Positions 1,145 to 8,604 of a stretch of DNA of 9,024 bases are shown here, piece by piece. The position numbers were made by a program, and so were the translations under genes. Below the pieces are notes generated by a model. The model did not search any database, had not been told where the DNA came from, and saw only the letters and a list, made by a program, of their open reading frames with translations. Every line of letters starts with the position of its first letter. Position 1 is the stretch's first letter. The stretch is from an uncultured Thermoleophilia bacterium (lineage in GTDB: Bacteria; Actinomycetota; Thermoleophilia; UBA2241). The stretch spans positions 1-9,024 of the forward strand of contig CAIXSE010000108.1 in the NCBI GenBank assembly GCA_903921965.1, in the 5' to 3' direction.

Positions 1145-2097
1145 CGGAGCGTCCGCGCCCCTCGGCGCCCGGACCGCCGCCGGTGCTCGCGCTCTTCGGG
1201 GCGACGGCGCTCGGCAAGTCCGCCGTCGCCGACCTGGTCGCCCGCCGTCTCGAGGCGGACGTCGTGGTCGCTGACTCCATGCAGGTGTACCGCGGCCTGC
1301 CGGTCGTCACCAACCAGCCGGCGCCTGACGGAGAGCCGCGGCGGCACCTCGTCGGCTTCGTGCCGCCGCAGCGGGAGTTCGGCGTCGCGGAGTACGCGCG
1401 GCGCGCCCACGAGGTCATCGACGGGCTGCGCGCCGAGGGCCGCGCCGTCGTCGTCGAGGGCGGGTCCGGCCTGTACCTGCGCGCCGCGCTGGGCGACCTG
1501 TCGTTCTTGGAGGCCCCCGACCCGGGTCTGCGGCGAGTCCTGGAGGGGCGCTGGGCGGGAGACCCGCACGGCGTGGTCGAGGAACTGCGCCGCCTGGACC
1601 CGGCGACCCTCGCGCGTGTCGACGCCGCCAACGGGCGGCGCGTGGTCCGCGCGCTCGAGGCGGTGCTGCTCCGCGGCGGGCCGCTGCCCGCCGGCGCCGC
1701 GGAGCAGCTGTGGCGGCCCGCCGAGCGGTACCCGCACGTCCTGGCCGCCCTGGTCCCCGACGACGACCGCGCAGCCCTGCGCGGGCGCATCGACGCCCGC
1801 GTCGACGAGATGCTCGAACGCGGCGCTCTCGACGAGGTCCGCGCCGCCCGCGCTGCCGGGCCGTTCTCGCGCACGGTCGAACAGGCCATAGGCGTGCGCG
1901 AGCTCTGCGCCGTCCTCGACGGCGAGCTCGCGCAGGACGAGGCCGCGGCGCGCATGAAGGCCCGCACGCGGGCCCTGGCGCGCCGCCAGCTCACCTGGAT
2001 GCGCAAGCTCCCGGACGCGTCTCTCGTGCCCGCGACCGGGCGCCCGCCCGAGGCGGTCGCGGCCGCCGTGCTGGCCCTGCTCCCGGACGGCGCGTGA
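1141..2097 (+). CDS. miaA: tRNA dimethylallyltransferase MiaA
   Basis: MiaA transfers a dimethylallyl group to N6 of adenosine 37 in tRNAs reading UNN codons, in the cytoplasm. The 318-residue product has the usual length. Visible motifs are the P-loop GATALGKSAVA (residues 20-30), DSMQVYRG (45-52), HLVGF (69-73), the EGGSGLYLR block, RIDARVDEMLERGALDEV, EQAIGVREL and the C-terminal TRALARRQLTW (276-286). The segment after DSMQVYRG reads VVTNQP where many MiaA proteins have GTAKP. The GTG start at 1141 gives a GTGA overlap with the AMMECR1 stop and places the P-loop at the normal distance from the N-terminus. No strong ribosome binding site lies just upstream, so translation is probably coupled. 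The TGA stop forms part of a possible promoter for dapF. Confidence 0.95.
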   Translation: MTERPRPSAPGPPPVLALFGATALGKSAVADLVARRLEADVVVADSMQVYRGLPVVTNQPAPDGEPRRHLVGFVPPQREFGVAEYARRAHEVIDGLRAEGRAVVVEGGSGLYLRAALGDLSFLEAPDPGLRRVLEGRWAGDPHGVVEELRRLDPATLARVDAANGRRVVRALEAVLLRGGPLPAGAAEQLWRPAERYPHVLAALVPDDDRAALRGRIDARVDEMLERGALDEVRAARAAGPFSRTVEQAIGVRELCAVLDGELAQDEAAARMKARTRALARRQLTWMRKLPDASLVPATGRPPEAVAAAVLALLPDGA

Positions 2098-2103
2098 TAA
2101 GAT
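2095..2103 (+). promoter_or_regulatory. Possible extended -10 promoter upstream of dapF
   Basis: TGATAAGAT fits an extended -10 element (TGn followed by TAAGAT) and overlaps the miaA stop codon. It stands out as AT-rich in a GC-rich setting and lies 55 bases before the dapF start. No recognisable -35 box sits 16-18 bases upstream. Two short perfect inverted repeats follow at 2103-2116 and 2118-2131 in the predicted leader. It may give dapF-dapL expression independent of the miaA run. Confidence 0.4.
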
Positions 2104-2131
2104 GCCCGCTCGGGCACGCCGCGACCGCGGC
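2103..2131 (+). repeat. Two tandem short inverted repeats in the dapF leader
   Basis: TGCCCG/CGGGCA (2103-2108 and 2111-2116) and GCCGCG/CGCGGC (2118-2123 and 2126-2131) are perfect pairs separated by only two bases each, so in RNA the innermost pairs would open into a loop. A weak pyrimidine run (CCTTTCCTC) follows. They could be a weak miaA terminator or dapF leader structure. Short GC-rich palindromes also arise by chance in such a genome. Confidence 0.3.
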
Positions 2132-2158
2132 GGCCTTTCCTCAGAGGGGGTCGGGAGA

Positions 2159-3025
<867 letters not shown>

Positions 3026-3028
3026 CGC

Positions 3029-4192
3029 ATGAAGTTCTCGCAGCGCGTCGACCGCCTGCCGCCGTACCTCTTCGCCGGCATCGAGAGGCAGATCGCCGAG
3101 CGTCGCGCCCGCGGTCTGGACGTCATCAGCCTGGGCATCGGCGACCCCGACCTGCCGACACCGCAGCACATCGTCGACGCGCTCGCCGAGGCGGCGAAGG
3201 ACCCTGCCGTGCACCAGTACCCGAGCAACCAGGGCGAGCCGGGCTTCCGCGAGGCGGTGGCTTCGTTCTACGCCTCGCGCTTCGGCGTCACGGTCGACCC
3301 GGGCTCCGAGGTCGTCCCGCTGCTCGGCGCCAAGGAGGGCGTCGCCCACATCGGCCTCGCCCTCCTGGACGTGGGCGACGTCGCGCTGGCCGCCGACCCC
3401 GGGTACCCCGTCTACGTCACCGGGCCCATGCTGGCCGACGGCGTCGCCGTGCCAATCCCGCTCGTGCCCGAGCTCGGCTTCCAGCCCGACCTCGAGGCCG
3501 TCCCCTCCGAGACCGCGGAGAAGGCCAGGCTCATCTTCGTGAGCTACCCCAACAACCCCACGGGCGCGGTGATCGAGGACGACTTCTTCGCGCGGCTCGT
3601 CGCGTGGGCGAAGGCCAACGACGTCGTGGTGGTGCACGACAACGCCTACGCAGACATCACCTACGACGGCTACGTCGCTCCGAGCTTCCTGGCCACACCG
3701 GGCGCCAAGGACGTCGGCGTCGAGATGTTCAGCCTCTCCAAGAGCTACAACATGACGGGCTGGCGCGCCGGGGCGATCGTGGGCAACGCCGACGTCGTCG
3801 ACGCCTACTGGCGCCTCAAGACCAACATGGACTCCGGCATGTTCGGGGCGGTGCAGCGCGCCGCGGCGGTGGCGCTCACGAGCTCGCAGGAGTGCGTGCG
3901 CGAGATGTGCCGTATCTACAAGCGGCGCCGCGACCTGCTGGTGCACGCGCTGCGGTCCATCGGCATACACGTGGAGCCTCCCAAGGGCACCATCTACCTG
4001 TGGGCGCCGGTGCCCGAGGGCTACACGTCGGCGAGCTTCACCGAGACCGTCCTGGAGCAGGCGGACGTGGTGGTCACGCCGGGAGCCGCGTACGGCGCCG
4101 CCGGCGAGGGCTACGTCCGCCTCTCGCTCACCATCGCCGACGAGCGCCTCGAGGAGGCCGTCCGGCGCATCGAGGAGCGGGTACGGCTGTAG
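3029..4192 (+). CDS. dapL: LL-diaminopimelate aminotransferase DapL
   Basis: DapL is a PLP enzyme that converts tetrahydrodipicolinate directly to LL-diaminopimelate using glutamate, bypassing the succinylase or acetylase branches. The 387-residue product is a fold-type I class I/II aminotransferase: SLGIGDPDLPTP near residues 35-46, QYPSNQGEPGFREA, SYPNNPTG (172-179), HDNAYAD (about 203-209), and the Schiff-base lysine K238 in SLSKSYNMTGWRAG. The SYNMTGWR stretch and opening region fit DapL better than aspartate aminotransferase, and the dapF neighbour supports this. A GGAG at 3019-3022 lies six bases before the ATG and overlaps the dapF stop region, so the two genes are almost certainly co-transcribed. 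The remaining doubt is substrate: a general aspartate/alanine-type aminotransferase would look similar. Confidence 0.92.
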   Translation: MKFSQRVDRLPPYLFAGIERQIAERRARGLDVISLGIGDPDLPTPQHIVDALAEAAKDPAVHQYPSNQGEPGFREAVASFYASRFGVTVDPGSEVVPLLGAKEGVAHIGLALLDVGDVALAADPGYPVYVTGPMLADGVAVPIPLVPELGFQPDLEAVPSETAEKARLIFVSYPNNPTGAVIEDDFFARLVAWAKANDVVVVHDNAYADITYDGYVAPSFLATPGAKDVGVEMFSLSKSYNMTGWRAGAIVGNADVVDAYWRLKTNMDSGMFGAVQRAAAVALTSSQECVREMCRIYKRRRDLLVHALRSIGIHVEPPKGTIYLWAPVPEGYTSASFTETVLEQADVVVTPGAAYGAAGEGYVRLSLTIADERLEEAVRRIEERVRL

Positions 4193-4208
4193 AGCGGCGA
4201 CGCCGGGA

Positions 4209-4238
4209 GTCCGCCTCGCCGGGTCCCCCCGGCCGGAC
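4209..4238 (+). other. GC-rich hairpin in the dapL-hflX gap
   Basis: GTCCG (4209-4213) pairs with CGGAC (4234-4238), and GCCGGG (4218-4223) pairs with CCCGGC (4228-4233) around a TCCC loop, giving 11 base pairs with a four-base bulge on the left side. No T-run follows. It lies between the dapL stop and the hflX ribosome binding site (GGAGGGGG, 4257-4264). It may be a weak terminator for dapF-dapL or leader structure for hflX. In sequence this GC-rich a chance origin is possible. Confidence 0.35.
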
Positions 4239-4268
4239 GCGCCGGGGCCACGACTCGGAGGGGGCCTC

Positions 4269-5615
4269 GTGAGGGGCGACGCCCGCATCACCGAGACCGG
4301 CGCGACCGAGACCCGGCCGCGCGCGGTCGTCTTCGCGGTCGTCCCCGGCGGCAGCGGCGAGCCCGGGGAGGACGAGCCGCTCAACGAGATCAAGGAACTC
4401 CTCAGCTCGGCCGACATGGACTGGGTCGCCGACGTGATCCAGCGCAAGGAGCGGCCGCACCCGCACTCCTACCTCGGCAAGGGCAAGCTCGAGGAGCTCA
4501 AGCGGGTCGTCCAGGAGGCGGGGGCCACCGTGGCCGTCTGCGAAGACGACCTCAGCCCCGGGCAGGTGGCCGCCGTGCTCGACGCGGTCGACGCCGACGT
4601 CCTCGACCGCACCGAGCTCATCCTCACCGTGTTCAGCAGGCACGCGCACTCGCTCGAGGGCACCCTGCAGGTACACCTCGCGCAGCTCGAGTACGAGCTC
4701 ACGCGCATGCGCGGCAAGGGCATGATCCTCTCGAGGCTCGGCGCCGGCGTCGACATGCGCGGGCCCGGCGAGACCAAGCTCGAGGTCGACCGCCGCGTCG
4801 TGCGCAAGCGCATCCAGACGCTGCGCAGCCGGATCGACCACATGGCGCGCACGCGCCGCACGCAGCGGGCGCGGCGCCTGCGCTCCGCCGTCCCGCTGAT
4901 CGCGCTGGCCGGCTACACGAACGCGGGCAAGTCCACGCTGCTCAACGCGCTCACCGACGCGACGGTCCCGGTCCGCGACCGGCTGTTCGAGACGCTCGAC
5001 CCGACGTCGCGCTCCTACCGCTACCGCGACCGCGACTACGTGCTCACCGACACGGTCGGCTTCATCCGCAAGCTGCCGCACCAGCTCGTCGACGCGTTCG
5101 CCAGCACGCTCGAGGAGACCACGCTGGCCGATGTCGTGCTCGTGGTCGCCGACGCCCACCTCGAGGCCTCCGAGGTCGCAGTCCGCCAGCAGACGGTCGC
5201 CGAGGTCCTGGACGAGCTCGGCGCCACGGCGCCGCGGATGCTGGTGTTCAACAAGACCGACCTGGCCGACGAGGGCAAGCTCGCGCGCCTGCGGGCGCTG
5301 TACCCGGAGGCCGAGTTCATCGCCGCCGCGAGCGGCGAGGGCCTCGACCGCCTGCAGGAGCGCCTGGCCGGCTTCTTCGACCGCGCCCTCAGGCCGGTGC
5401 GGCTGCTCTTCCCGTACCGCGACGCCGCCGAGATGCACCGCCTGCGCGGCGTCGCCAGCGACGTGCACGAGGAGCACACGCCGGAGGGCGTGCTCTTCAC
5501 GGCCCGGCTGCCCGTCGCCGAGGCCGGCCGGTACGCGCGCTACGCGCTCGGACCCGAGCCGCGCGGCGACGATGCGGCCGACGGCGACGCCGTCGCGCCC
5601 GGAGACCCCCGGTGA
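4269..5615 (+). CDS. hflX: GTPase HflX
   Basis: HflX is a ribosome-associated GTPase that binds the 50S subunit and splits stalled ribosomes under stress. The 448-residue protein shows the HflX order: an N-terminal domain with YLGKGKLEEL, a central helical linker containing GPGETKLEVDRR, then the G domain with G1 GYTNAGKST (215-223), DPTSR in the switch region, G3 DTVGF (261-265), a QLVDAFASTLEE segment and G4 NKTD (328-331), and a C-terminal alpha/beta domain. The GTG start is preceded by GGAGGGGG (4257-4264). An acidic, disordered-looking tail (DDAADGDAVAPGD) ends the protein. The TGA at 5613-5615 overlaps the dut GTG by four bases, so the two are translationally coupled. Confidence 0.95.
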   Translation: MRGDARITETGATETRPRAVVFAVVPGGSGEPGEDEPLNEIKELLSSADMDWVADVIQRKERPHPHSYLGKGKLEELKRVVQEAGATVAVCEDDLSPGQVAAVLDAVDADVLDRTELILTVFSRHAHSLEGTLQVHLAQLEYELTRMRGKGMILSRLGAGVDMRGPGETKLEVDRRVVRKRIQTLRSRIDHMARTRRTQRARRLRSAVPLIALAGYTNAGKSTLLNALTDATVPVRDRLFETLDPTSRSYRYRDRDYVLTDTVGFIRKLPHQLVDAFASTLEETTLADVVLVVADAHLEASEVAVRQQTVAEVLDELGATAPRMLVFNKTDLADEGKLARLRALYPEAEFIAAASGEGLDRLQERLAGFFDRALRPVRLLFPYRDAAEMHRLRGVASDVHEEHTPEGVLFTARLPVAEAGRYARYALGPEPRGDDAADGDAVAPGDPR

Positions 5616-6088
5616 ACACCGGCGCCGCCGGGTCGGCGCTGCACGGCCCGGGCGGCATCAGAGTCCCCGTCAAGCTGCTGGTCCCGGCGGCCTCCGTGCC
5701 CGTCCGCGCCTACGACCACGACGCGGCCTACGACCTGTGCGCGGCCGAGGACCTCACCGTCGAGCCGCTCGGGCGCGCCGTCGTCGGCACAGGCATCGCC
5801 CTCGGGCTGCCGCCGGGCCTCGCGGCGCTCACGCTGCCGCGCTCGGGTCTGGCCGCCAGGCACGGCATCTCGATCGTCAACGCACCCGGCCTGATCGATC
5901 CGGGGTACCGCGGCGAGATCCGGGTCATCCTCCTGAACACCGACCGGCTCGAGCCCTTCGAGGTCCACGCCGGCGACCGCATCGCACAGCTGCTCTTCCT
6001 CCCGGTGACCGAGGCGACGCTCTCCGTCTCCGACGACCTCGAGGACACCCACCGCGGTGGCCGCGGCTTCGGCTCCAGCGGGCGCTGA
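5612..6088 (+). CDS. dut: Deoxyuridine 5'-triphosphate nucleotidohydrolase (dUTPase)
   Basis: This 158-residue trimeric-type dUTPase hydrolyses dUTP to dUMP and pyrophosphate, keeping uracil out of DNA and feeding dTMP synthesis. All five family motifs are visible in order: DAAYDLCA (37-44), PRSGLA (76-81), GLIDPGYRGEIRV (93-105, containing the uracil-pocket tyrosine), GDRIAQL (121-127), and the glycine-rich C-terminal RGGRGFGSSG (148-157), which in this family closes over the active site. The GTG at 5612 overlaps the hflX stop as GTGA; this start adds about 15 residues before the usual beginning at VPVKLL, and no better in-frame start codon lies nearer to that point. The gene ends about 30 bases before a strong promoter for the next gene. 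Confidence 0.94.
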   Translation: MNTGAAGSALHGPGGIRVPVKLLVPAASVPVRAYDHDAAYDLCAAEDLTVEPLGRAVVGTGIALGLPPGLAALTLPRSGLAARHGISIVNAPGLIDPGYRGEIRVILLNTDRLEPFEVHAGDRIAQLLFLPVTEATLSVSDDLEDTHRGGRGFGSSGR

Positions 6089-6115
6089 CGCCGGCGGCGG
6101 CAGCAGCACAGGTCG

Positions 6116-6145
6116 TTGACTGGCCCGGCAGCAAGCCAGTAGGCT
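6116..6145 (+). promoter_or_regulatory. Sigma-70/SigA-type promoter of the Nudix gene with an internal inverted repeat
   Basis: TTGACT (6116-6121) and TAGGCT (6140-6145) are separated by 18 bases, a good match to actinobacterial housekeeping promoters (TTGACn and TAGnnT). Transcription would begin near 6152, giving a leader of about 40 bases. ACTGGC (6119-6124) and GCCAGT (6135-6140) form a perfect 6-bp inverted repeat with a 10-base spacer that touches both promoter boxes. This could be an operator for a repressor, but no regulator can be named. Confidence 0.7.
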
Positions 6146-6157
6146 GACCCATCACTG

Positions 6158-6174
6158 GGCCGCCTCTGGCGGCC
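6158..6174 (+). other. Leader hairpin before the Nudix ribosome binding site
   Basis: GGCCGCC (6158-6164) and GGCGGCC (6168-6174) form a perfect 7-bp stem closed by a TCT loop, located at the predicted 5' end of the Nudix mRNA and ten bases ahead of AGGGGGAG (6183-6190). It may stabilise the transcript or tune ribosome access. No T-run follows, so it is not a standard terminator. Confidence 0.4.
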
Positions 6175-6193
6175 GCGGGGGCAGGGGGAGCAC

Positions 6194-6700
6194 ATGACGC
6201 AGCAGGAAGCCGACAGTCCCGAGGCCGTGCGGGACCCGGCGCCGGACGTCAGCGCCTCACCGGACAAGCCGACCATCCGCGTCGCGGGCCTCCTCGTCCA
6301 CGAGGGCCGCATCCTCATGGTCGAGCAGGGCCGGGCGGGGGAGAGGTACTGGCTCCTCCCCGGCGGCGGGGTCCGCTTCGGCGAGACGCTCTCAGACGCC
6401 CTGCGTCGCGAGTTCGCCGAGGAGCTCCGCATCCGTGTCGGTGTGAACAAGCTGCTCGCCATCGTCGAGTCCGTCTCTCCGGACCCGGCGTACCGCAAGC
6501 ACGTCGTGCACCTCGTCTTCGAGGTGTCGGCTCCGTCCGAGGTCGCGCCCGAACCTCACGATCCCAAGGTCCTGTCCGCGGCCTTCCTCGACGAACTGCA
6601 GCTCCAGCGTATCGACGTGCGCCCGCCCGTCACCGAGTTCCTGAGCGCCTGCGTGCGCGAGCTGCCGTCGTCGCCCCAGTATCTCGGGCGCCGCTGGTAG
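6194..6700 (+). CDS. Nudix hydrolase family protein
   Basis: Nudix proteins hydrolyse nucleoside diphosphates linked to another moiety, using a divalent metal. The 168-residue protein has a charged, probably disordered N-terminus of about 26 residues, a strand IRVAGLLVHEGRILMVEQ, and a Nudix box at residues 58-80 with the metal-binding REFAEE core (72-77) and E64. The position that is glycine near the box end is arginine here (R79). The lead-in YWLLPGGGVRFGE resembles NTP/mutator-type Nudix proteins, but substrate cannot be predicted. Translation starts at ATG 6194 after AGGGGGAG at 6183-6190. The gene has its own promoter and appears monocistronic. The C-terminus ends SPQYLGRRW. Placement beside dut could hint at nucleotide-pool cleaning, though this is only context. 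Confidence 0.88.
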   Translation: MTQQEADSPEAVRDPAPDVSASPDKPTIRVAGLLVHEGRILMVEQGRAGERYWLLPGGGVRFGETLSDALRREFAEELRIRVGVNKLLAIVESVSPDPAYRKHVVHLVFEVSAPSEVAPEPHDPKVLSAAFLDELQLQRIDVRPPVTEFLSACVRELPSSPQYLGRRW

Positions 6701-6731
6701 ACGCGCCGGCGCCGGCCGGGTTCCTCGAAGA

Positions 6732-6759
6732 GCACGCGATAATCTCCGTTATGTAAAGT
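6732..6759 (+). other. dif: Candidate dif site (XerC/XerD chromosome-dimer resolution)
   Basis: The 28 bases divide into a left 11-base arm GCACGCGATAA (6732-6742), a 6-base centre TCTCCG, and a right arm TTATGTAAAGT (6749-6759). The right arm matches the XerD arm of Bacillus subtilis dif (TTATGTAAACT) at 10 of 11 positions and resembles that of E. coli (TTATGTTAAAT). The inner ATAA/TTAT pair flanks the centre exactly as in known dif sites, while the outer left arm is diverged, as is usual for XerC arms. The site is AT-rich in a very GC-rich region, noncoding, and lies where gene direction flips from + to -. Recall of the consensus is from memory. The alternative is that GATAAT (6738-6743) is merely a promoter -10 box. 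Confidence 0.55.
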
Positions 6760-6913: not shown

Positions 6914-6963
6914 CCGGACACTCGGACTCCGCAGGTCCGAAGCTGCGAAGTCCGAGTGTCCGG
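6914..6963. repeat. 50-base near-perfect inverted repeat (long hairpin)
   Basis: CCGGACACTCGGACT (6914-6928) and AGTCCGAGTGTCCGG (6949-6963) are perfect 15-base complements. After one mismatch (6929/6948) the stem continues with CGCAG/CTGCG (6930-6934 and 6943-6947), leaving the 8-base loop GTCCGAAG. In total 20 of 21 positions pair. No T-run follows on either strand. It could be a bidirectional terminator between convergent genes, the core of a small RNA, or a palindromic repeat element. A perfect 10-base palindrome AGGACGTCCT sits immediately to its left (6901-6910). Confidence 0.8.
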
Positions 6964-7324: not shown

Positions 7325-7852
7325 TCAGTACGTGATCAGGCTGAAGACGTCGTAGCCTTCGAGCTTCTCGCGCCCGCCGAGGGCGCCGAGCTCGATGATG
7401 AAGGCGACGCCCACGACTTTGCCGCCGAGCTTCTCGACGAGCTCGATCTTGGCCCTGGCCGTGCCGCCCGTGGCCAGGAGGTCGTCGTGCACGAGCACGT
7501 TCTGGCCCGGCTTGATGGCGTCGGCGTGCACCTCGAGCTTGTCGGTGCCGTACTCGAGCGCGTACTCGGCCGAGACGGTGTCGTGCGGCAGCTTGCCCGG
7601 CTTGCGCGCGCAGACGAAGCCGGCGCCGAGGCCGTAGGCGACGGCGGCGCCGAGGATGAACCCCCGCGCCTCGGCCCCCATGACCACGTCGACGTGCTTG
7701 CCCACCCCGTACTCGACCAGCCGGTCGACGGCCTCGTGCAACGCCCTGGGCTCCTGCAGCAGCGGCATGATGTCGCGGAACAGGATCCCCTCCTTGGGGA
7801 AATCCGGGATGTCGCGCACGTGCGAGCTGAGGTCGATACCGGGGTCGGTCAT
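7325..7852 (-). CDS. apt: Adenine phosphoribosyltransferase
   Basis: Apt salvages adenine by joining it to PRPP to give AMP. The 175-residue length is typical. Visible motifs are IPDFPKEGILFRDI (residues 15-28), which opens most Apt proteins; GAEARGFILG (59-68); the flexible-loop region ARKPGKLP (82-89); and the PRPP-binding loop VLVHDDLLATGGTA (119-132). The ATG at 7850-7852 is preceded by GAAGGAG on the minus strand, five bases away, an unusually clear ribosome binding site for this window. It lies 20 bases downstream of ftsR on the same strand and is probably the last gene of the garA-like/ftsR/apt operon, with terminator-like stems beyond its end. Confidence 0.95.
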   Translation of the reverse strand: MTDPGIDLSSHVRDIPDFPKEGILFRDIMPLLQEPRALHEAVDRLVEYGVGKHVDVVMGAEARGFILGAAVAYGLGAGFVCARKPGKLPHDTVSAEYALEYGTDKLEVHADAIKPGQNVLVHDDLLATGGTARAKIELVEKLGGKVVGVAFIIELGALGGREKLEGYDVFSLITY

Positions 7853-7872: not shown

Positions 7873-8604
7873 TCAGCGGCCGGTGCGGCCGCCGCTGAGC
7901 CGCCGCAGGCCACGGGCCAGCAGCAGCTGGCGAAGCTGGGTGGTGGCCTGGACGATGTCGTCGAGCTGGTCCAGGCCTTCGCGCCGCCTCTCGGGCCGCG
8001 CGGAGCCGAGCGCCGGCAGGAGGACCTGCTCGATGAGGCCGATCTCGCGGTCGACGGCGCTCTTGACGATGCGCAGGTTCTTGGGCCGCAGCCCCAGCTG
8101 GGCCAGCTGGGCGGCGGCGCCCACGATGCCCGCGTCGGTCTCGGTATAGCGGCGCACCCCGCTGACCTGGCGGGCGTGGACGAGCTCGAACTCCTCGAGC
8201 TCGGACAGCAGCCCGCTGTCGGCCCCGGTCATCGCGAGGATCTCCTCGGCCGTGAACTCGCGCTCGTCGGCCGACGGCACGAGGTCGGCCTTGCGCAGCG
8301 TGGGCCGCGAGGACGGCAGCGGGTTCGCCGGGCTGCGTTCGAGCTCCCGGCGGATGACCTTGAGCGGCAGGTACTCGTCGCGCTGCATGGCGAGCACGCG
8401 CACGAGCCGCTTGAAGTCGTCCTGCGAGTACAGACGGTAGCCCGCCTTGGTGCGGCGCGGCGTGACGAGGCCCTGCTCCTCGAGGTAGCGCAGCTTGCTC
8501 ACGCTGATGTCGGGGAACTCCCCGCGCAGCCGCTCGACGACCGAGCCGATGGTGAGGAGCTTCTCTTCCCCGACGTCGAACAGGAGCTCGGCGGGGTCGC
8601 TCAT
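7873..8604 (-). CDS. ftsR: MerR-family transcriptional regulator FtsR (Rv1828-like)
   Basis: The 243-residue protein starts with a MerR-type winged helix: LTIGSVVERLRGEFPDISVSK (about 17-37), RYLEEQGLVTPRRTKAGYRLYS (39-60) and AMQRDEYLPLKVIRRELE. This arrangement, including the DEYLPLKVIR segment, matches the mycobacterial Rv1828/FtsR family, which has a second C-terminal domain and was shown in corynebacteria to activate ftsZ transcription. No metal-sensing cysteines are present. The ATG at 8602-8604 overlaps the upstream FHA gene stop as ATGA, and the frame open further upstream is only a shadow of that gene. The Rv1827 (garA)-Rv1828 order of Mycobacterium is conserved here. No separate ribosome binding site is evident, implying coupled translation. 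Confidence 0.9.
   Translation of the reverse strand: MSDPAELLFDVGEEKLLTIGSVVERLRGEFPDISVSKLRYLEEQGLVTPRRTKAGYRLYSQDDFKRLVRVLAMQRDEYLPLKVIRRELERSPANPLPSSRPTLRKADLVPSADEREFTAEEILAMTGADSGLLSELEEFELVHARQVSGVRRYTETDAGIVGAAAQLAQLGLRPKNLRIVKSAVDREIGLIEQVLLPALGSARPERRREGLDQLDDIVQATTQLRQLLLARGLRRLSGGRTGR

What the first reader, a model, noticed from the sequence alone, without database searches (positions are those of the whole stretch)
6732..6759. Candidate dif site for Xer recombination in a GC-rich actinobacterial chromosome
The arms GCACGCGATAA and TTATGTAAAGT flank a 6-base centre in the exact 11-6-11 layout of dif. The right arm is one base from the B. subtilis XerD arm. It is an AT-rich island in a convergent, noncoding gap at a gene-direction switch. 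If right, this window is the replication terminus.
Basis: partly seen in the sequence, partly recalled or inferred. Interest (0 to 1): 0.7.

Follow-up and report, generated by a model that had tools for sequence, protein, structure and literature searches.

The report
Chromosome dimer resolution site (dif)
This short DNA site is very probably the spot at the replication end point where two linked copies of an actinobacterial chromosome are cut apart before cell division; it is an ordinary kind of site in a poorly studied group, and it lies in an unusually conserved gene neighbourhood.

Summary
The 28-bp site at 6732-6759 is real and is almost certainly a dif site. The window's own genome is not held, so the evidence comes from relatives. 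In the seven close relatives whose contigs reach it, the same 28 bp sit in the same nudix/apt gap and are the only clearly conserved stretch of that gap. Of 399 class genomes 272 carry the site, 254 of them once; a backward-read control hits 10. In nine single-contig genomes it lies at 74-99% of the maximal distance from dnaA. In G266 the GC skew changes sign at the site; in the window's kin gene direction reverses there, though raw GC skew does not flip cleanly. Two Xer recombinases are found in 16 of 18 relatives and FtsK with its gamma domain in 37 of 37 genomes. One bin has an insert at dif built like known Xer-integrated elements. Extra: a gene block from ftsK through recA, miaA and hflX to dut runs up to dif in two actinobacterial groups, ftsK being 16-28 kb away in eleven genomes but 220 kb or more in 12 others.

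The parts
6732..6742 (+). left arm of dif, GCACGCGATAA: predicted XerC-binding half
   Evidence: arm assignment by alignment with E. coli, B. subtilis and F. alni dif; binding not tested
6743..6748 (+). 6-bp central region TCTCCG, where strand exchange is expected
   Evidence: the centre varies between genomes
6749..6759 (+). right arm of dif, TTATGTAAAGT: predicted XerD-binding half
   Evidence: binding not tested
6194..6700 (+). NUDIX hydrolase gene, left neighbour, points toward dif
   Evidence: PF00293
5612..6088 (+). dut (dUTPase)
   Evidence: PF00692; lies on the ftsK/hflX side of the site in the other group too
4269..5615 (+). hflX (GTPase)
   Evidence: PF13167, PF16360, PF01926; query
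7325..7852 (-). phosphoribosyltransferase, apt-like, right neighbour, points toward dif
   Evidence: PF00156; the name apt rests on recall
7873..8604 (-). MerR-family regulator gene
   Evidence: PF13411, gene start

Best explanation
The 28-bp sequence is the dif site of a Thermoleophilia-like actinobacterium. After an odd number of crossovers leaves sister chromosomes as one dimer, FtsK at the septum pumps DNA until two dif copies meet. XerC on the left arm and XerD on the right arm then exchange strands across the 6-bp centre and resolve the dimer. Shown here: the sequence, and in relatives its conservation, single copy, terminus position and the presence of the proteins. Inferred from the known Xer/dif/FtsK pathway: binding, strand exchange and dimer resolution at this site.
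For: Present in the same gap in 7 of 7 close relatives whose contigs reach it (L003-L008, L057); the contigs of the two others, L001 and L002, end before it. In these seven and the window the commonest base covers on average 7.36 of 8 sequences inside the 28 bp and 4.13 of 8 in the 15 bases on each side (alignment). In 8 of 9 kin genomes exactly one match at 0-1 mismatch; G001 has only a 2-mismatch hit. Class-wide, 272 of 399 genomes at up to 1 mismatch, 254 with exactly one and 18 with more, backward-read control in 10 of 399 (last three numbers counted by hand). The dnaA-dif arc is 0.74-0.99 of half the chromosome in nine single-contig genomes, all chosen for having a site. GC skew in G266: 11 of 12 stretches left of the site positive (one -0.0003), 8 of 11 right of it negative, and opposite signs in the 10 kb on either side. 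In kin, rightward coding 281,895 bp against leftward 7,617 bp on the left, leftward 43,473 against rightward 8,466 bp on the right. Two or more Xer-family matches in 16 of 18 relatives; in 14 of these one gene scores higher with the XerD model and the other with the XerC model. FtsK gamma in 37 of 37 genomes. In bin G211 a 1,622-bp insert lies between a copy of XerC arm + centre with a divergent right half and a complete dif, while a second contig of the bin, 94% identical, has the site without insert; this is the arrangement described for TLCphi and the gonococcal genetic island (PMC5357621, passages seen).
Against: No biochemical or genetic test. The window's own genome is not held, so its copy number, GC-skew extreme and Xer genes are not seen. 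Raw GC skew in the window's clade does not mark the site: it is negative near it on both sides, turns positive farther out in G005 and G009 on the left and in G008 on the right, and stays negative to 100 kb in G004. In G205 the sample at 3.36 Mb, about 0.22 Mb before the site, is already negative. 127 of 399 class genomes show no site at up to 1 mismatch; incompleteness or diverged arms may explain this, not tested. No Xer match passes the curated XerC cut-off (0 of 18; only 2 of the 14 control genomes pass it), and 10 of 18 genomes pass the XerD cut-off. The search for strand-biased octamers gave none that stands out.
Confidence: 0.96

Rival explanations
1. It is an operator: a palindrome bound by a transcription regulator of the neighbouring genes.
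For: Both arms share an inverted ATAA/TTAT core; a MerR-family gene lies nearby.
Against: It lies between the 3' ends of two convergent genes, not at a promoter. It occurs once in 254 of 272 genomes with a site. In 10 of 20 dif-centred 20-kb stretches none of the window's eleven proteins has a match, and six of those ten are among the nine single-contig genomes where the site is at the terminus.
Confidence: 0.02
2. It is an attachment site of a phage or other mobile element, not the host's own dif.
For: dif sites are used by Xer-integrated elements, and one such insert is seen in G211.
Against: No second half site at up to 3 mismatches in the window or in the stretches held for seven kin, no integrase among the window's genes, and conservation across the class.
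Confidence: 0.01
3. It is a transcription terminator of the convergent pair.
For: It sits in the convergent gap.
Against: The sequence of both arms is conserved with a variable centre, also where the neighbours differ. The gap holds a strong hairpin elsewhere, at 6914-6963, z -4.88.
Confidence: 0.01

Closest known systems
Predicted dif of Frankia alni and of other Actinobacteria (Kono et al. 2011, PMC3025954)
   Same: 11-6-11 layout, CGATAA...TTATGT core, right arm 10 of 11
   Different: Left arm 6 of 11, centre 2 of 6. A term search of that paper's main text finds neither Conexibacter nor Rubrobacter (passages seen, supplements not read).
B. subtilis dif, acted on by CodV/RipX
   Same: Right arm 10 of 11; 11-6-11 layout and two recombinases (PMC5357621, passage)
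   Different: Left arm 5 of 11
E. coli dif, acted on by XerC/XerD with FtsK
   Same: Layout and right arm 9 of 11; two Xer homologues and FtsK gamma in relatives
   Different: Left arm 5 of 11
GGI and TLCphi integration at dif
   Same: The G211 insert: XerC arm and centre repeated, divergent right half, whole dif kept on the other side
   Different: The G211 insert is 1,622 bp with one long predicted gene, a DUF418 protein, and is not in the window's clade

Membership tests
dif (XerCD type) | 28 bp: two 11-bp arms with partial dyad symmetry and a 6-bp centre | tested here: met
dif (XerCD type) | one copy per chromosome | tested here: met
   In relatives: 8 of 9 kin genomes, 254 of 272 class genomes with a site. 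Not testable in the source genome.
dif (XerCD type) | located at the replication terminus, opposite oriC | tested here: met
   In relatives: nine of nine single-contig genomes at 0.74-0.99 of the maximal arc from dnaA; gene-direction reversal in kin
dif (XerCD type) | GC-skew sign change near the site | tested here: inconclusive
   At the site in G266; offset in G205; not clean in the window's clade
dif (XerCD type) | host encodes XerC and XerD | tested here: met
   In relatives: two or more matches at E<=1e-40 in 16 of 18, one each in G001 and G006. XerD cut-off passed in 10 of 18, XerC cut-off in 0 of 18; in 14 of 16 the two genes split between the models by score; in G008 and G009 the second match is partial.
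dif (XerCD type) | host encodes FtsK with a gamma domain | tested here: met
   37 of 37 genomes; 4TM, alpha, motor and gamma domains in the G004 gene on L284
dif (XerCD type) | Xer recombinases bind and recombine the site; loss of the site impairs dimer resolution | not testable with these tools
   Only indirect: the dif-bounded insert in G211
dif (XerCD type) | oriented FtsK-guiding octamers converge on the site | tested here: inconclusive
   no octamer stands out in 40 sampled stretches of two genomes

The most novel reading that the evidence does not exclude
The closeness of ftsK (and recA) to dif is an ancient, selected layout: in Thermoleophilia and at least one other actinobacterial group the genes that make and process chromosome crossovers sit beside the site where dimers are resolved. 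Membrane-coupled synthesis of FtsK there could help hold the terminus at the septum, or late replication of the block could time its expression. If so, the terminus here is a conserved functional module, not the usual variable end of the chromosome.
Probability: 0.15. Interest if true: 0.65.

Novelty: new member of a known kind. Interest (0 to 1): 0.4.

Why it matters
It supplies a class-wide dif sequence and terminus anchor for Thermoleophilia: searches for Thermoleophilia with 'dif site' and Conexibacter with XerC found no paper in the held library. A fixed terminus marker helps to orient draft genomes, to find Xer-integrated elements, and to ask why the gene block from ftsK to dut keeps its place next to dif when gene order near termini is usually thought to be fluid (recalled).

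Tried and rejected
Octamer strand-bias scan for FtsK guiding sequences: nothing stood out. Contig ends near dif as a sign of integrated elements: 7 of 60 loci (some of them weak 2-mismatch places) are cut within 1.5 kb, against 4 of 30 Xer loci clearly short by my reading of the lengths, so no excess; in the multi-site genomes, chosen for being odd, 16 of 28 are cut. First crude gene caller gave false antisense genes in the window and was replaced by a codon-usage caller that recovers the window's genes; the coding counts in this report come. Of 14 multi-site genomes listed again I compared flanks in four (G211, G272, G316, G393) and followed up G211 only. G272 looks like two assembly variants of one locus; G375 and G389 look like mixed bins (my reading, not tested). 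Further half sites: 3-mismatch hits in L183 and L190 taken as chance, and 2-mismatch hits in L189 and L190 that overlap their own palindromic dif. Papers: no source seen for ftsK-dif closeness (listings and starts of abstracts) and none for IMEX with Xer, dif and Actinobacteria (no paper). Kono et al. report xerC mostly near dif, xerD near the origin and ftsK between them (passage). Of the Legionellales paper PMC9765430 I saw the abstract and section list.

Full report
WHAT IS THERE. The window is 9,024 bases of 67-78% G+C DNA. Codon-usage gene calling gives eight rightward genes ending at 6700 and three leftward genes from 7325 on: a LigB-domain (memo-like) gene, AMMECR1, miaA, dapF, a class I/II aminotransferase, hflX, dut and a NUDIX gene; then leftward a phosphoribosyltransferase, a MerR regulator and an FHA protein. 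The 28 bp in question lie at 6732-6759, 31 bases after the NUDIX stop codon. No genome is held for the window. The nine closest relatives by HflX are environmental Actinobacteria/Thermoleophilia bins with 67-86% identity (L001-L008, L057).

IS IT MORE THAN CHANCE. No shuffle of the window gave a match within 3 mismatches (0 of 200). The HflX scan, which knows nothing of the site, returned those nine; the contigs of two end before the gap and the seven others have the site in the same place. Aligning the gap of the window and these seven shows the coding end of the NUDIX gene, then little similarity, then the 28 bp, then little similarity. CGATAA and TTATGT are fixed in these eight; the centre varies (TCTCCG, TGTTCG, TCATGG, TCGCCG).

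COPY NUMBER. In the nine kin genomes G001-G009, eight have exactly one place at 0-1 mismatch; the other places have 2 mismatches, and G001 has only such a place. In 399 genomes drawn from the class, 272 have a place at up to 1 mismatch. By my count of the table 254 have one and 18 have more; the backward-read control pattern hits in 10. In 296 genomes of the phylum 178 match; there several AT-richer genomes also have many control hits.

POSITION. Of 21 genomes chosen from those with a site, nine have dnaA and the site on one contig that makes up all or nearly all of the genome. The arc between them is 0.74 to 0.99 of half the chromosome; uniform placement would put all nine that high with probability 6e-6, a figure that ignores their kinship. 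G205 and G266 were sampled for GC skew in 20 stretches each: on the arm running up from dnaA 9 of 11 and 10 of 11 are positive, on the other arm 8 of 9 and 9 of 9 are negative. Denser sampling around the G266 site gives 11 of 12 positive on the left (one at -0.0003) and 8 of 11 negative on the right; the 10 kb left of it are +0.031 and the 10 kb right of it -0.014. In G205 the last sample before the site is already negative, an offset of about 0.2 Mb.

THE WINDOW'S OWN CLADE. Contigs of G004, G005, G007, G008 and G009 carrying the site were sampled, with gaps, to at most 140 kb on the hflX side, and to 56 kb (G008) and 10 kb (G004) on the apt side. Left of the site 281,895 bp of predicted coding run rightward and 7,617 leftward; right of it 43,473 run leftward and 8,466 rightward. 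Raw GC skew does not show the switch here: it is negative near the site on both sides, becomes positive farther out in G005, G009 and G008, and stays negative to 100 kb in G004. Sense strands are C-rich at third positions, leading-strand genes slightly less so (-0.169 against -0.202), the expected direction but small.

MACHINERY. Of 18 relatives searched, all have a strong XerD-family match and 16 have two or more. The XerC model finds the same genes. In 14 of the 16 one gene scores higher with the XerD model and the other with the XerC model; in G008 and G009 the second match is partial and the models tie. The curated cut-off is passed by 10 of 18 for XerD and by none for XerC, a cut-off that only 2 of 14 control genomes pass. 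FtsK motor domains are in 18 of 18 and the gamma domain, which directs FtsK and activates XerD (established for E. coli; recalled), in 37 of 37.

A SIGN OF RECOMBINATION AT dif. Bin G211 holds two contigs, 94.35% identical over 3,345 bp. One has a plain dif. The other has the XerC arm and centre, then a different right half, then 1,622 bp later a complete dif with the same right flank as far as the two can be compared. The insert carries a 425-codon DUF418 gene. The review PMC5357621 (passages seen) describes this arrangement for TLCphi and the gonococcal island: a good XerC half and centre with a divergent XerD half. That recombinases act on the class's dif in nature is an inference from this one case.

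NEIGHBOURHOOD. Kin gene order was taken from G004 (ftsK, rodZ-like, DUF520, a radical-SAM gene, a CDP-alcohol phosphatidyltransferase, cinA, a 2'-5' RNA ligase-like gene, recA, rny, miaB-like, then genes of the window; 10 of 20 predicted genes of L284 scanned). The ftsK gamma-domain match lies 16-20 kb from dif on the same contig in five kin genomes, and ftsK 28-223 kb from dif in the nine single-contig genomes. From the printed list I picked 19 of 27 genomes whose site lies on contig C1. One (G661) has ftsK on another contig; six have ftsK 17-28 kb from dif and 12 have it 220-2,354 kb away along the contig. The sites of these 19 were not checked further. In the six, ftsK, recA, rny, miaB, miaA, hflX and dut run toward dif in the same order, and in three of the six the apt gene is seen on the other side, pointing at dif. 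I recall a similar run from spoIIIE through recA and hflX toward dif in B. subtilis, not checked here. In G205, G266, G360 and G368 the two Xer genes stand on opposite sides of dif, nearly evenly spaced. By contrast 10 of 20 dif-centred stretches show none of the window's proteins near dif.

VERDICT. It is a new member of a known kind. The conserved layout around it is the more interesting lead, unproven as to function.

Noticed in passing
L284 (G004) and window 1183-6759; other genomes: The block ftsK-recA-rny-miaB-miaA-hflX-dut leads up to dif in the window's kin and in six genomes of another actinobacterial group, ftsK 16-28 kb from dif, whereas 12 other actinobacterial genomes have ftsK 220 kb or more away.
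   Followed up: partly
L319 (155-1800) against L320 (bin G211): A 1,622-bp insert with a DUF418 gene sits at dif with a repeated XerC arm and centre, the architecture of Xer-integrated elements.
   Followed up: partly
window 6914-6963: Strong hairpin (z -4.88) in the nudix/apt gap without a T run; no conserved counterpart in the aligned kin gap. Perhaps a terminator of the convergent pair.
   Followed up: no
window 6734 and 6736, and the same positions in L003-L008, L057, L093: Positions 3 and 5 of the left arm seem to swap together: A and G in the window, L004, L006, L008; G and A in L003, L005, L007, L057, L093; no other combination in these nine.
   Followed up: no
G205, G266, G360, G368; G096, G027: Two Xer genes lie on opposite sides of dif at similar distances (for example -288.6 and +315.8 kb in G205), while in G096 and G027 they are neighbours and more than 650 kb from dif.
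   Followed up: no
L057, within 260 bases left of dif at 12677: Repeated CGCCGACAGGCCGCC-like units between the nudix gene and dif, not seen in the other seven aligned gaps.
   Followed up: no
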